Assembly: GCA_902774185.1 (NCBI GenBank)
Contig: CACYHE010000004.1
Coordinates: 53,846 to 117,845 of the forward strand
Length of the DNA: 64,000 nucleotides
Direction: 5' to 3'
Origin: an uncultured Bacteroidales bacterium
GTDB taxonomy: Bacteria; Bacteroidota; Bacteroidia; Bacteroidales; Paludibacteraceae
Positions 37,421-43,356 of the stretch are shown here, one piece after another. The notes beneath the pieces were generated by a model. It did not search any database. It saw only the letters and a program-made list of their open reading frames with translations, and was not told the DNA's origin. Positions within the stretch are counted from its first letter, which is position 1; each line of letters opens with the position of its first letter. Made by a program: the position numbers and the translations under genes.

Positions 37421-37502
37421 CAAAAAAGGGCGAGACTTGCGTCCCACCCTGAATGTTTTCACAACGGAATAATCCTTATTGTGTATGTCATTCAAAAAAG
37501 TT
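37421..37502 (-). ncRNA. tracrRNA of the type II-C system
   Basis: Read on the minus strand, the transcript begins near 37500-37503 with CTTTTTTGAATGACATACAC, the anti-repeat. It pairs with the first 22-23 nt of the repeat in crRNA sense (37479-37500 on the plus strand copies that stretch with one A fewer). A nexus-like hairpin follows (GGA, loop, UCC), then GUUGUGAAAAC. A terminal stem has arms GGGTGGGAC and GTCTCGCCC closing a GCAA loop, ending in six U residues (37422-37427). About 80 nt long. This orientation fixes the crRNA strand as minus. It lies beyond cas2, 5.7 kb from the cas9 start, rather than next to it. Confidence 0.9.
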
Positions 37503-37505
37503 GTG

Positions 37506-37537
37506 CAAAAGTACTACTTTTTTGTAATATATGCAAA
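37506..37537 (-). promoter_or_regulatory. tracrRNA promoter
   Basis: Minus strand TTTG (complement of 37534-37537), 20 nt, TACTTTTG (complement of 37506-37513). The expected start falls on the first bases of the anti-repeat. It is divergent from the cas2 promoter, the two -33 elements being about 16 bp apart. Confidence 0.85.
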
Positions 37538-37553
37538 TATTTTTGAAATTTTC

Positions 37554-37584
37554 TTGCATAATTGTGGCATTTTTCGTAATTTTG
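37554..37584 (+). promoter_or_regulatory. cas2 promoter
   Basis: TTG at 37554-37556, 20 nt, TAATTTTG at 37577-37584, then CAGCCGG. The predicted start site is at 37590-37592, so the cas2 mRNA begins at or just before its ATG and is leaderless or nearly so. Confidence 0.75.
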
Positions 37585-37591
37585 CAGCCGG

Positions 37592-39721: not shown

Positions 39722-42700
39722 GCTTTAGTGATACGCCCCATAATATCAATTTTTACTTTATGAGGGAACAGGGCAAATAAACTTCCAAAACTTCGAATTG
39801 GCACTAATGCGCCAAGCGACATACTCGCGTTACGGCCATTCTCAATACCTGCATATTTATCATCCACTTTCGTTTCTGTATGATAACGGAAGTTATAAAA
39901 CAGAGAACTAATATTTTGTATTCTGTACAAGTGTTTATTTAATACCGCATTGTCTTTCGCTTCAATTGCGTCATTAAATTCATCTTCTTCCATACCAAGC
40001 ACAAACATTTCGTTTTCTTGCATGGAGAGTATATATGTCCAATCGTCCTTTGGAAGCTTTACTAAAAACTCTTGCGGAAGGTCTTTGTCCATGATGCTAT
40101 CCCAGACATCATGAGGATTAGAAATAACTACCGGTACTCCAAATTTCTTGCGTTCTACAGCATCCCAAAAACTAACTACCATTTCCTGATATTTGCCACT
40201 TTTATCTCGGTAAATTGCAATATGATGATTACTATCTGTTTCGGAAAAACCAATAGGCTTTTGACGTTCATTGTATTTAACAGCAACTACACCTTTATCT
40301 GCTAATTTATTGTTGTAGCATCTAATAGTTCTAATCTCCATTCCTTCTGCAGAATATAGAGGTTCCTTAAAAGCCTCTTTCGCATTTCCATTAAAGGCTG
40401 CTAATCTTGCTTTTATCAATTGGCGAATTGTAGGATCTACTATGTTTTCTGGATTTGAGATTGCATCGATTGGATACTTACGTGCATATTTGTTGCCATT
40501 CTTTGTATACACGAATTCATTTGTTAACGCCCCACGCGGTACTTGAATATTCCTTTGCACAATAGTACGTTTCCCTCCTTGATATATTGCGCGGCGTGCA
40601 GGTGTTGTCACACGTTTGCCAGCACGGAAGGAAACGAGGATACTATCTACGCTATGCGTAACATCCTCCACAGAGAAATGCGGTTGCTCATTTACCCATT
40701 TCTCCAAGAGTGACTTCTTCTCATTATATACCGTATTCGCTGCTTCTACCTCTTTTAACATCTCTTCACGCGTAAATTCCGCATTTAGAGAATTCAAACG
40801 CTGGATATAGGCTTGGCGGGTAAGGGCAACCGTCAACGCATCTATCGCATGGTGACGATGATCGATACGTTTCGACCAATTCTTAATCCGCTCCTCATCA
40901 TGTTCCTGACCTGCATGTTCGTAATGAACCATCTCGGTCAAACCATCCACTTTGCGATATCGCGGCAAATTGAGCGTGTGTAAAATCTCGTCGTAGCCCC
41001 ATTGATGACGCAAGAAATCGGTCACACTACCACCGCTTGTCCAAACTTGGCGAATACCTTGCTGCAAGATCTCAACCGCCTTCACGGCTATATATTGGCT
41101 TTGACGCAATTGGCGATCAATGAAATCTTTAGGAATGTTGGACTTATGCCACAAGAGGTGATCGCGCTTGGTTTTACTGATACGACCTTCTTTGAATGCC
41201 TCATCCACACGTTGTTTGTAGGCTTCTTGTTCTGCTGTAGGCTTTGTTTCCAAATAGTCCAATGCCGTCAAATTCCCTTTCTCGTGGTTACACTCACGGC
41301 ACGCACAGACTTTATTGCTGAAACTATCATCAAACAGGATACTACGCGGAATGATATGCTCTATCTCAACATCTGCGCCATTGAGGAATTCTGCCAAACT
41401 AACCGTCTTGCCGCAATACATACAACGGTGGTTGCTTTCCTCCCACATCTTATATTTTTGTATGCGCGAACGCGAAGGACGAATTCCCATCTCTTCAATT
41501 TTAGCGAATATCTCTTTATTAAGACGCTCGTTCTGATTATTTCGTCTATAGGCACCTTCACGCTCCTCGCGGCTTTGCTTGAGTTCGCGTGCCAACTCAA
41601 CCCTTGCTTCATCAATCGGTCCATATTCTTGTTGCAGACGATTCACCAGATTAATCATCTGATTTAGGATCTTCTCAATAACCGGTTGACGCAGGGCGTT
41701 CTTTTGTAGCAGTTCAATATGCTCCTTCAATTGGCGTGCGTCGCGCTCTGCGGCAGTCATCGAATTGGAATGTTTGATGCCAATACGAGCGCAAGCCTCG
41801 CTATACATCATTCCGTCCATCAAATATGGCAACAACCGGCGGATAAACTTATGCGACTTATTGGCATAGCCAGGCTTAACGAAATCAATTTTGCAAAGGG
41901 CGTCAATAACATCCTGGTCATCTATGCCGAACTTATTTCGTAGCGTCTTGGCTAATTCGTCTGCGTCTTGAATGGAATAGACAGCGTGCCAGAGTTTAAA
42001 TAGGGGCGTTTGCTCTATTTCCGGACTAACCTGCCAAAATACTTCTGTGGTCTCATTATCGACAGCATCTATGCGCTCAATTGGCATTTCCAACCACTCG
42101 CTATACTTGCCATTCATAGCTTTGCGCAATTGGTTCAAGGTCGCGTTGCCTTTGATGCCTTTGCCGATTGCCTTGCCTCCATACCAACCGTCTTTCTTGG
42201 TGATGCCCAGAATCTTATATAGGTCAGTTAGCTTGAGTACCTCGTGTGTGCAGAGGTGCTCTACTATCTGTCTTCGTTCCTCCAAAGAGAAATCATACTG
42301 CCCGTTGTTACGGTTGGTCAGCGTGATGTTATTTGCCGTCTCCCACATCGCACATAGTTGCGCTAAAGGCGATGTCCTCGGCGCACATTTTGGACCACCA
42401 TAGACGATTTTACCGTCTTTGGTCTTGTACGGTTTCATCTCAAACTCACACAAACTAACTAAGTGTTTGCACGACTTCAACGGACGTTGGTAGAAGATAA
42501 TGCGGTTACGTAGCGTATCAATCAACTCATCGGTAAGCACTTCTGGGTAATAGGCTTTCTGCACCTTCATAATCTGGTCAAATTCCGCGATATATGCTGC
42601 ACGAGGAAAAACCTTGTCTTTGATACGGTAGGTATAATATGGTCCATCTCCGCTTTCTACTTTGCTGCGCAGTAATTCCATATAGAAATGCTGACCTATA

Positions 42701-43197
42701 GTTTGCTTGGCTTCTTGAATCTCTTTGTACCGTTGATTTACCGCCTCTACATACTTCGTCTGCTTGCTATCACCATTATTGTCAGCCTTGGCATGTTTGT
42801 ATCCGCGTTTCTGATTGATATGATAAAGCACGCGACCTATCTGCGGTAATGTCAGTTGGTGTCCGTCCATTGCAGCATCACTACGTAGTTTCCACAAATC
42901 TATCACATTCTCATTCATTCGTTCTGGTAACATTCCGTTCTGCCGCAACACTTGCGTCAATAATGCACGGCGTAACTGATAACGATCGTATCCTTTGCGC
43001 GTAGTACGACGAGTCGTGCGATCTGCATTCTTGCTTATCGCCTGTCCCTTACTAAATTGGTCACTATCATCTTTGGAAAGGGGAACAATACGGCTACCAA
43101 TGCCGATGATTTGTTTCGGTTGGTCGTTTTCCGTCTCAATCAAAGCCCAACCTATTGAACCTACTCCTAAATCTAATCCGAGAATGTGTTTTATCAT
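39718..43197 (-). CDS. cas9: CRISPR-associated endonuclease Cas9, type II-C
   Basis: 1159-residue RNA-guided nuclease. RuvC-I is ILGLDLGVGSIGWAL with D9. The arginine-rich bridge helix spans about 56-80 (RTTRRTTRKGY). RuvC-II is ARVELARELK with E534. The HNH domain has the catalytic H614 in EIEHIIPRS and N628, framed by a CMYC (592-595) and a CREC (633-636) pair that suit a zinc site. RuvC-III is HRHHAIDALTVA with H783 and D786. All catalytic residues are present, so both strands should be cut. Length fits II-C. No csn2 or cas4. Base composition is more AT-rich than the flanking housekeeping genes. It has its own promoter at 43299-43329 and is followed by the HUH gene with an ATGA overlap. 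Confidence 0.97.
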   Translation of the reverse strand: MIKHILGLDLGVGSIGWALIETENDQPKQIIGIGSRIVPLSKDDSDQFSKGQAISKNADRTTRRTTRKGYDRYQLRRALLTQVLRQNGMLPERMNENVIDLWKLRSDAAMDGHQLTLPQIGRVLYHINQKRGYKHAKADNNGDSKQTKYVEAVNQRYKEIQEAKQTIGQHFYMELLRSKVESGDGPYYTYRIKDKVFPRAAYIAEFDQIMKVQKAYYPEVLTDELIDTLRNRIIFYQRPLKSCKHLVSLCEFEMKPYKTKDGKIVYGGPKCAPRTSPLAQLCAMWETANNITLTNRNNGQYDFSLEERRQIVEHLCTHEVLKLTDLYKILGITKKDGWYGGKAIGKGIKGNATLNQLRKAMNGKYSEWLEMPIERIDAVDNETTEVFWQVSPEIEQTPLFKLWHAVYSIQDADELAKTLRNKFGIDDQDVIDALCKIDFVKPGYANKSHKFIRRLLPYLMDGMMYSEACARIGIKHSNSMTAAERDARQLKEHIELLQKNALRQPVIEKILNQMINLVNRLQQEYGPIDEARVELARELKQSREEREGAYRRNNQNERLNKEIFAKIEEMGIRPSRSRIQKYKMWEESNHRCMYCGKTVSLAEFLNGADVEIEHIIPRSILFDDSFSNKVCACRECNHEKGNLTALDYLETKPTAEQEAYKQRVDEAFKEGRISKTKRDHLLWHKSNIPKDFIDRQLRQSQYIAVKAVEILQQGIRQVWTSGGSVTDFLRHQWGYDEILHTLNLPRYRKVDGLTEMVHYEHAGQEHDEERIKNWSKRIDHRHHAIDALTVALTRQAYIQRLNSLNAEFTREEMLKEVEAANTVYNEKKSLLEKWVNEQPHFSVEDVTHSVDSILVSFRAGKRVTTPARRAIYQGGKRTIVQRNIQVPRGALTNEFVYTKNGNKYARKYPIDAISNPENIVDPTIRQLIKARLAAFNGNAKEAFKEPLYSAEGMEIRTIRCYNNKLADKGVVAVKYNERQKPIGFSETDSNHHIAIYRDKSGKYQEMVVSFWDAVERKKFGVPVVISNPHDVWDSIMDKDLPQEFLVKLPKDDWTYILSMQENEMFVLGMEEDEFNDAIEAKDNAVLNKHLYRIQNISSLFYNFRYHTETKVDDKYAGIENGRNASMSLGALVPIRSFGSLFALFPHKVKIDIMGRITKA

Positions 43198-43298
43198 AGT
43201 TTTTCCATATTTTCGCTTTTAAGTGGAGTATAGCGGACTCGAAAGGAAAATTCGATGAGCTAATACCCCGTGTTTTGCGTTTGCACACAAAATGTGCG

Positions 43299-43329
43299 CA
43301 AAATTACACTTTTTTTCTCACATATGCAA
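43299..43329 (-). promoter_or_regulatory. cas9-HUH operon promoter
   Basis: Minus strand TTG (complement of 43327-43329), 20 nt, TAATTTTG (complement of 43299-43306). The leader to the cas9 ATG is about 95 nt and contains nothing I recognise. Confidence 0.75.
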
Positions 43330-43356
43330 GAGTGGAGCCTATTTTTTAGAAAAAAA

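What the first reader, a model, noticed from the sequence alone, without database searches (positions are those of the whole stretch)
37421..43330. Cas9-HUH-array-Cas2 locus without cas1
Seen: complete cas9 with all RuvC and HNH residues, an HUH-transposase-like gene starting inside the cas9 stop (ATGA), an array of 8 intact repeats, cas2 on the opposite strand, and a tracrRNA beyond cas2. No Cas1-like frame exists in the window. Known: type II-C loci normally read cas9-cas1-cas2-array; Cas9's ancestors (IscB) travel with TnpA, an HUH enzyme. Inference: the HUH protein could supply strand cutting/joining for spacer uptake with Cas2, or be part of a transposon-CRISPR partnership. The alternative is that a REP-type transposase gene replaced cas1 and the system no longer adapts.
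Basis: partly seen in the sequence, partly recalled or inferred. Interest (0 to 1): 0.85.

Follow-up and report, generated by a model that had tools for sequence, protein, structure and literature searches.

The report
RAYT-type HUH genes in cas operons
A small DNA-nicking transposase gene sits beside cas9 in a rumen-type gut bacterium in which the spacer-acquiring gene cas1 seems to be lost; related transposases turn up repeatedly inside CRISPR operons of this bacterial order, which hints at an unrecognised link between the two.

Summary
In detail: cas9, an HUH gene starting in the cas9 stop, eight identical repeats, opposite-strand cas2, an antirepeat, and no cas1 in the held, 87%-complete genome. 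The HUH protein is a RAYT/TnpA_REP-like Y1 enzyme with a probable DprA-like C-terminal domain, from a multicopy family (120 of 178 genus genomes). It did not begin as a Cas1 substitute: G041 has cas9-cas1-HUH-array, G075 keeps only the two ends of cas1, and G136 and the window have HUH starting in the cas9 stop. Of these three loci without intact cas1, two also lack cas2, and G075 has six different repeats out of six. The window is best read as an II-C locus that may still interfere but no longer adapts in cis.

The surprise lies outside. In a second RAYT-like subfamily, 10 of 12 members in this family adjoin cas9/cas1. Of 78 examined relatives of that subfamily, 26 adjoin cas genes, on the same strand: cas9-HUH-cas1 in II-C, cas6-HUH or HUH-cas4-cas1 in I-B. 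Whether this is a favoured landing site or a true CRISPR accessory is open and testable.

The parts
39718..43197 (-). cas9, type II-C, 1159 aa, no stops
   Evidence: TIGR01865 523.6 bits; PF18541 and PF13395; omega 0.06 and 0.08 against G142 and G003 (dS about 1.2)
38678..39721 (-). RAYT/TnpA_REP-like HUH (Y1) gene, 347 aa; ATG overlaps the cas9 stop (ATGA)
   Evidence: NF047646 20.9 bits, below its cut-off of 80; NHLH histidines, Tyr181 and NP invariant, WQ nearly so, in 46 aligned homologues; model pLDDT 84, Foldseek to ISDra2/IS608 TnpA, RAYT 4er8 and DprA
39656..39705 (.). REP-like palindrome 1, read in frame as the HUH N-terminus
   Evidence: direct repeat 90% identical, 399 nt from copy 2; core found only twice in the held genome, both here; model residues 1-31 pLDDT under 50
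39257..39306 (.). REP-like palindrome 2, in frame between the HUH and Tyr motifs
   Evidence: in-frame REP insertion between HuH and Y motifs is described for TnpA_REP subclass 2.4 (PMC6006769 sections 12 and 23)
38648..38671 (-). half terminal CRISPR repeat (3' half) abutting the HUH stop; limits approximate
   Evidence: read; a comparable half repeat follows HUH in G041, G075 and, after about 60 nt, G136
38034..38617 (-). CRISPR array, 8 identical 47-nt repeats, 29-30-nt spacers (8 spacers counting the one next to the half repeat)
38234..38263 (-). spacer with viral matches
   Evidence: 22-nt 3' part exact in 10 IMG/VR contigs; 2-5 mismatches over 30 nt, best 28/30
37925..38033 (-). conserved leader-like stretch with a hairpin, between array and cas2
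   Evidence: conserved in 8 of 9 aligned loci, not G019
37592..37924 (+). cas2, 110 aa
   Evidence: PF09827 61 bits; 98-99% aa identity to G003/G142, dN 0.008, dS 0.93-0.97
37424..37499 (-). putative tracrRNA: antirepeat 37479-37499 then terminator-like stem
   Evidence: 21-nt exact antirepeat; similar segment in G003, G075 and G136 and G142; expression not tested

Best explanation
This is a type II-C CRISPR locus in which a RAYT/TnpA_REP-type HUH gene settled downstream of cas9-cas1, in the terminal (leader-distal) repeat. cas1 was later deleted, so the HUH gene now starts where cas1 used to start. Cas9, tracrRNA and a fixed array probably still give interference (inferred); new spacers cannot be taken up in cis (inferred from the missing cas1). 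The HUH enzyme most likely acts on its own REP hairpins as a single-strand nicking/joining enzyme (inferred from family and motifs), not as a spacer integrase. The steps are seen in relatives; that they apply to the window, and its functional state, are inferred. The window is one case of a wider pattern: RAYT-type HUH genes recur on the same strand inside Bacteroidales cas operons.
For: G041 has cas9-cas1-HUH-array; G075 keeps the first 15 and the last about 45 nt of cas1 between cas9 and HUH, followed by the same 13-nt cas1-HUH spacer (12 of 13 nt identical); G136's HUH ORF starts with ATGATAAA as cas1 does in G003. The closest Cas9s (G142 88%, G003 86%) have cas1 and no HUH there. In the genus 19 of 20 evaluable HUH-less loci keep cas1 (one, G108, only in part at a contig end) against 1 of 4 HUH loci. 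The family is multicopy: 120 of 178 genomes, 6 matches in the own genome. HUH, WQ and Tyr motifs are kept; omega 0.09 (G000-G136, dS 1.6) and 0.18 (G041-G075, dS 0.16), other pairs mostly saturated. Fold matches Y1 transposases and the REP-associated transposase 4er8. 6 of 6 repeats differ in G075 against 12 of 12 identical in G041; cas2 not found in G075 or G136. Wider pattern: 26 of 78 loci.
Against: The window's 8 repeats are identical and its Cas2 is conserved (dN 0.008). Yet the cas9/HUH junction is shared in length and in 18 of 23 nt with G136, whose HUH is far diverged (dS 1.56). Taken vertically, that would mean a long time without cas1 and no visible decay, so either the cassette was imported recently or something still turns the array over. 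The NCBIfam RAYT cut-off is not met (20.9 against 80). cas1 is also lost or cut without HUH: G047 in the genus, G205 (none seen in 16 kb) and G322 (first 76 residues only) in other genera. Nearly all of the genomes used are drafts in many contigs.
Confidence: 0.7

Rival explanations
1. The HUH protein is a recruited accessory of CRISPR adaptation or array maintenance: it nicks, trims or rejoins single-stranded prespacers or integration intermediates, normally beside Cas1-Cas2, and persists in the window with Cas2. (This rival and the cargo-slot rival concern the wider pattern and can overlap with the history given as best explanation.)
For: Recurrent, stereotyped positions: cas9-HUH-cas1 in II-C, cas6-HUH(-cas8-like) or HUH-cas4-cas1 in I-B; 26 of 78 loci, all 26 on the strand of the cas genes in the examined flank. 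One subfamily adjoins cas9/cas1 in 10 of 12 members in the family, plus G606 outside it, beside differing Cas9s; omega 0.08-0.21 for pairs with dS under 2.5, many near saturation. In G249, G281, G266 and G345 the other copies in the genome are much weaker (best E 1e-39 and 41% in G345; short stretches up to 52%).
Against: Patchy: 5 of 28 other-genus Cas9 loci have it, 1 more a broken remnant (G233). Two of 18 residents depart from the motif pattern (G254 NYFH, G606 no Y...NP match). 52 of 78 examined relatives have no cas neighbour in the flank searched. In G660 an element rich in palindromes, with the HUH gene, interrupts cas1 (contig ends soon after).
Confidence: 0.2
2. The HUH enzyme replaced Cas1 and works with Cas2 to insert spacers.
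For: Cas2 and homogeneous repeats are kept in the window without cas1.
Against: HUH coexists with Cas1 in G041; HUH loci G136 and G075 have no detectable cas2; repeats decay in G075; close copies (G006, G173, G126) lie where no cas gene or CRISPR array was found in 8-11 kb.
Confidence: 0.04
3. The cas9-cas1 junction is only a tolerant cargo slot, and RAYTs fall there as other genes do, with no functional meaning.
For: Other genes sit in that slot too: DUF6155 (G266, G345, G350), an HU-like gene (G345, G350), an AAA-type gene after HUH in G251, an endonuclease-V-like gene in G252 (names by eye except DUF6155).
Against: II-C residents fall into six separate groups of the HUH2 tree (some weakly supported) plus the window's group, always same strand and similar position; RAYT-like genes also occupy other slots in I-B operons. 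Among 66 loci of the window's own HUH family no neighbour recurs in more than 3.
Confidence: 0.3
4. An active cas1 lies elsewhere in the unsampled 13% of the genome and serves this array in trans.
For: Genome 87% complete; homogeneous repeats; trans adaptation between CRISPR types is the subject of PMC8092290 (search listing and start of abstract only).
Against: No Cas1 in the held genome; the other two HUH genomes without intact cas1 at the locus (G136, G075) lack a Cas1 match too.
Confidence: 0.12

Closest known systems
Type II-C CRISPR-Cas (cas9-cas1-cas2-array-tracrRNA)
   Same: Cas9 of II-C kind, array of 47-nt repeats, antirepeat/tracrRNA-like element, cas2
   Different: cas1 missing; a RAYT-type HUH gene at its position; cas2 on the opposite strand beyond the array (G003, G041, G153 and G176 show that cas2 orientation with cas1 present)
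RAYT / TnpA_REP, subclass 2.4 of Quentin et al. 2018 (PMC6006769)
   Same: NHxH-type motif, WQ, Tyr followed by xNP, REP palindromes inserted in frame between HuH and Tyr motifs, Bacteroidetes
   Different: Long C-terminal domain, DprA-like by fold; below the NCBIfam RAYT cut-off; REP foot reads GTTG rather than GT[AG]G; lies in a cas operon
REP-associated tyrosine transposase bound to a REP hairpin (PDB 4er8; E. coli, species recalled)
   Same: Y1 fold
   Different: 12-15% identity over the aligned part; no CRISPR link known to me
IS200/IS605 elements with TnpA and TnpB/IscB
   Same: Y1 HUH fold (ISDra2, IS608)
   Different: No RNA-guided partner of its own and no IS ends identified; IscB/TnpB ancestry of Cas9/Cas12 is a separate matter

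Membership tests
Type II-C CRISPR-Cas | Cas9 with RuvC and HNH domains | tested here: met
Type II-C CRISPR-Cas | cas1 in the locus | tested here: not met
   an II-C derivative lacking its adaptation integrase
Type II-C CRISPR-Cas | cas2 and a repeat array | tested here: met
Type II-C CRISPR-Cas | tracrRNA | tested here: inconclusive
   antirepeat and stem present in relatives; no Rfam match; no expression data
Type II-C CRISPR-Cas | no csn2 or cas4 | not tested
   no separate search was made
RAYT / TnpA_REP | HUH and single-Tyr catalytic motifs, Y1 fold | tested here: met
RAYT / TnpA_REP | cognate REP palindromes in or near the gene | tested here: met
   two in-gene palindromes; homologues carry palindromes upstream and in frame (read by eye). 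Exact core not found elsewhere in this genome
RAYT / TnpA_REP | NCBIfam equivalog cut-off (80 bits) | tested here: not met
   20.9 bits for the window; 22.0-63.5 bits for nine related proteins. Hence called RAYT-like, not filed as a RAYT equivalog
RAYT / TnpA_REP | cleaves its REP as ssDNA | not testable with these tools
   needs purified protein
IS200/IS605 insertion sequence | subterminal hairpin ends and precise single-strand excision | tested here: inconclusive
   no shared element ends beyond the REP seen in a flank comparison of 26 copies

The most novel reading that the evidence does not exclude
RAYT-type HUH endonucleases are a hitherto unrecognised accessory class of CRISPR-Cas in Bacteroidales, joined several times independently to II-C (cas9-HUH-cas1) and I-B (cas6-HUH-cas8-like, HUH-cas4-cas1) operons, where they process single-stranded DNA for spacer uptake or array upkeep; in the window's lineage the locus has persisted after losing cas1, with HUH and Cas2 still under selection.
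Probability: 0.2. Interest if true: 0.9.

Novelty: new variant of a known kind. Interest (0 to 1): 0.66.

Why it matters
Cas1 is usually taken as the CRISPR integrase, and RAYTs as REP handlers of uncertain use (both recalled). A repeated, same-strand, same-position marriage of the two in ten families of one order (f1, f13, f25, f30, f49, f64, f65, f80, f96, f104) would either give RAYTs a role in immunity or reveal cas operons as a favoured landing site that can cost the host its adaptation gene. The G041, G075, G136/window series is a readable record of how a CRISPR system loses cas1 beside a mobile gene.

Tried and rejected
Considered and rejected. (1) HUH gene peculiar to this genome or an assembly chimera: rejected, four species. 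(2) HUH carried by plasmids or phages: no match in either collection. (3) That HUH causes cas1 loss: not established, because G047, G205 and G322 lost or cut cas1 without HUH, and 17 HUH-resident loci outside the genus keep at least part of cas1 in view with no break seen. (4) Target specificity of HUH for the CRISPR repeat (both carry GTTG): not supported; junction nucleotides differ between G000, G041 and G136. (5) A single origin of the four CRISPR copies of HUH1: they group together with support 0.887 only, next to a non-CRISPR copy from G006 (0.987); likely, not proven. (6) Spacer age: five of eight spacers tested by one 21-22-nt exact pattern each, one with viral matches; too few to date the array; three were not tested.

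Led nowhere: Rfam; paper searches for a RAYT-CRISPR or HUH-cas9 association or for II-C loci without cas1. They cover open PMC papers only and I read few of the listed papers (PMC5294841 on isolated cas genes, for one, was seen in the listing only), so absence from print is not established. The neighbour scan lists the 25 commonest families only, so rare neighbours may be missed. No formal null model was computed for the 26 of 78.

Dropped rows: 8 of 86 listed HUH2-type matches were not fetched (4 of 24 family, 4 of 62 order). In the genus, 2 of 26 Cas9 loci (G022, G053) end inside cas9 and were left out of the cas1 count. The HUH1 tree used 70 of 81 extracted copies (nine duplicates and two short fragments dropped), themselves a selection of the matches. 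In the HUH1 neighbour count the CRISPR copies of G041, G075 and G136 were left out as already described. Pairs with undefined dS give no ratio; several ratios quoted as ranges rest on dS above 1.5 and are rough.
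Full report
WHAT IS THERE. On the - strand run cas9 (39718-43197), the HUH gene (38678-39721, its ATG inside the cas9 stop), a half repeat against the HUH stop, and eight identical 47-nt repeats (38034-38617); cas2 follows on the + strand (37592-37924) and then an antirepeat with a terminator-like stem (about 37424-37499, - strand). No Cas1 profile match exists in the held genome, which is 87% complete. A leader-like stretch between array and cas2 is conserved in 8 of 9 aligned loci, so the HUH gene lies at the leader-distal end (inferred). 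The other hits are Bacteroidales or Paludibacteraceae MAGs; the three titles that name a host organ (sheep omasum, goat reticulum, sheep rumen) point to the foregut of ruminants, while G041's title says pig. The window's own source is not named.

WHAT THE HUH PROTEIN IS. Pfam gives nothing; NCBIfam gives the REP-associated tyrosine transposase model at 20.9 bits, below its cut-off of 80. In 46 homologues the two histidines of NHLH, Tyr181 and the NP after it are invariant and WQ is nearly so. The AlphaFold2 model (mean pLDDT 84) matches ISDra2 and IS608 TnpA, the REP-associated transposase 4er8 (E 7e-4), and also DprA (4ljr, E 5e-4) and ShosA (8zva, E 2e-5). I infer an N-terminal Y1 domain and a C-terminal DprA-like domain; Foldseek gave no aligned ranges, and that ShosA is DprA-like is recalled. 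Two 50-nt palindromes 399 nt apart lie in frame inside the gene, in stretches of low or reduced model confidence; their core occurs nowhere else in the held genome. In-frame REPs between HuH and Tyr motifs are described for TnpA_REP subclass 2.4, abundant in Cyanobacteria and Bacteroidetes (PMC6006769; outline, passages and sections 12 and 23 read). The family is multicopy: 120 of 178 genomes of the genus, up to 9 matches per genome, 6 in the own genome (some copies split into two matches).

HISTORY IN THE GENUS. Cas9 matches occur in 25 of 178 genomes, 26 loci. Four have the HUH gene; 19 have cas1 and no HUH at that place (G108's cas1 is cut by a contig end); one (G047) has a cas1 cut after about 50 nt near a contig end and no HUH; two end inside cas9. 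The four form a series: G041 cas9-cas1-HUH-array; G075 cas9-[first 15 + last about 45 nt of cas1]-HUH-array; G136 and the window cas9-HUH-array, with equal junction length and 18 of 23 nt identical. So cas1 was lost after HUH arrived, probably twice (inferred: G075, and the G136/window junction). Without intact cas1: 3 of 4 HUH loci against 1 of 20 others, Fisher p = 0.0076, not corrected for relatedness. Outside the genus cas1 is also missing (G205) or cut (G322) in loci without HUH, so the link is not strict. The window's Cas9 groups with G142 and G003, which have cas1, while its HUH groups with the other CRISPR copies (support 0.887). For G041-G075 the HUH dS is 0.16 but the Cas9 dS 1.2, so parts of this locus have recombined.

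IS THE LOCUS STILL ADAPTING? Against: no cas1; 6 of 6 repeats differ in G075; G136 has a 21-nt insert in 4 of 5 repeats and a duplicated spacer; cas2 is not found in G075 or G136. For: the window's 8 repeats are identical and its Cas2 is conserved (dN 0.008 at dS 0.93-0.97). The six arrays of cas1-bearing relatives that were counted have one to three repeat versions each. A recently imported HUH cassette or trans Cas1 would explain both; continued turnover without Cas1 is not excluded. One of five tested spacers matches ten viral contigs, best 28/30.

THE WIDER PATTERN. Looking at Cas9 loci of other genera in the family (28 genomes) I found a different, shorter Y1 protein (HUH2, about 215 aa) between cas9 and cas1 in G249, G281, G266 and G345, a remnant in G233, and a third kind in G285. 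HUH2's model (pLDDT 89.7) matches the REP-associated transposase 4er8 first (E 4e-8). Of 12 family members at about 59% identity or more, 10 adjoin cas9 or cas1; cas1 is seen downstream in nine, and G275's contig ends inside HUH2. In a sample of 393 genomes of the order, 48 have a relative at E <= 1e-25. Of 86 listed matches (family and order) I examined 78: 26 adjoin cas genes, all on the strand of the cas genes in the examined flank. Eighteen are in or next to II-C genes: most are cas9-HUH-cas1; G704 and G559 have HUH after cas9 with cas1 farther off (in G559 on the other strand); G660 has HUH after an interrupted cas1; G525 and G617 show HUH-cas1-cas2 only, assigned to II-C by Cas1 similarity of 55-56%. 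Six follow cas6 (four of them with a cas8-like gene next), and two precede cas4-cas1b. Cas6 (4), Cas4 (2) and one Cas1b passed NCBIfam cut-offs in the proteins scanned singly; the second Cas1b and two Cas6 rest on the member count or on tblastn; 'cas8-like' is by position and mutual similarity only. cas1, cas9 and cas2 are the most frequent neighbours (15, 14 and 11 loci); the next cluster has 5. Among 66 loci of the window's own HUH family no neighbour is found in more than 3. The II-C residents fall into six groups in an approximate tree, some weakly supported. I think this is unlikely to be chance, but ran no formal null; the same-strand bias would also follow from selection against disrupting operons, and the slot holds other cargo as well.

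HOW IT MOST LIKELY WORKS. Shown: the anatomy, the states in relatives, kept catalytic motifs, low dN/dS, recurrence in cas operons. Inferred: the direction of the series, that HUH nicks and joins REP hairpins, that the window's Cas9, tracrRNA and spacers can still interfere, that uptake in cis is dead. Open: whether cas operons are a favoured landing site for RAYTs or whether some, HUH2 above all, help adaptation.

PAPERS. PMC6006769 (outline, passages, two sections). PMC12669027 (passages only): HUH and TnpA not found in its text; a figure legend speaks of Cas9 shuffling in situ at II-C loci. PMC10309648 (passages): IS982 and IS256 inside one Flavobacterium II-C locus. PMC5006608 (two passages). 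PMC8092290 (listing and start of abstract). None of my searches showed a RAYT-CRISPR association, but the library is partial.

Noticed in passing
window 43511-44083 (+): Zeta-toxin/AAA-like gene (PF06414 46.3 bits), divergent from cas9.
   Followed up: no
L033 11238-11769: G136 array: 4 of 5 repeats carry the same 21-nt insert, and one spacer occurs twice.
   Followed up: partly
L036 594-1808: A third HUH kind (404 aa, 34% to the window's) lies upstream of cas9 in G019, with a repeat pair holding a palindrome.
   Followed up: partly
L137 3650-4609: In G142, whose cas1 is intact, a copy of the window's HUH family (65%) lies about 3.4 kb from cas2 on the same contig.
   Followed up: no
L253, L262, L263, L271, L272: Five non-CRISPR HUH2-type genes share a neighbour cluster; scans of the batch holding these flanks gave caspase/EACC1-type and GldK/EgtB-like hits, perhaps another conflict system; not assigned protein by protein.
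   Followed up: no
L170, L171, L165, L243: The cas9-cas1 region in related genera also holds DUF6155, HU-like, endonuclease-V-like and AAA-type genes (by eye except DUF6155).
   Followed up: partly
L164 and L169: Other-genus cas9 loci without HUH: G205 shows no cas1 or cas2 in 16 kb, G322 only the first 76 residues of cas1.
   Followed up: no
L131 (G108:C114): G108 has a second, distant Cas9 with Cas1-like pieces on both sides of it.
   Followed up: no
L039 14593-14788: G047: cas1 cut after about 50 nt and joined to other sequence close to a contig end, without HUH.
   Followed up: partly
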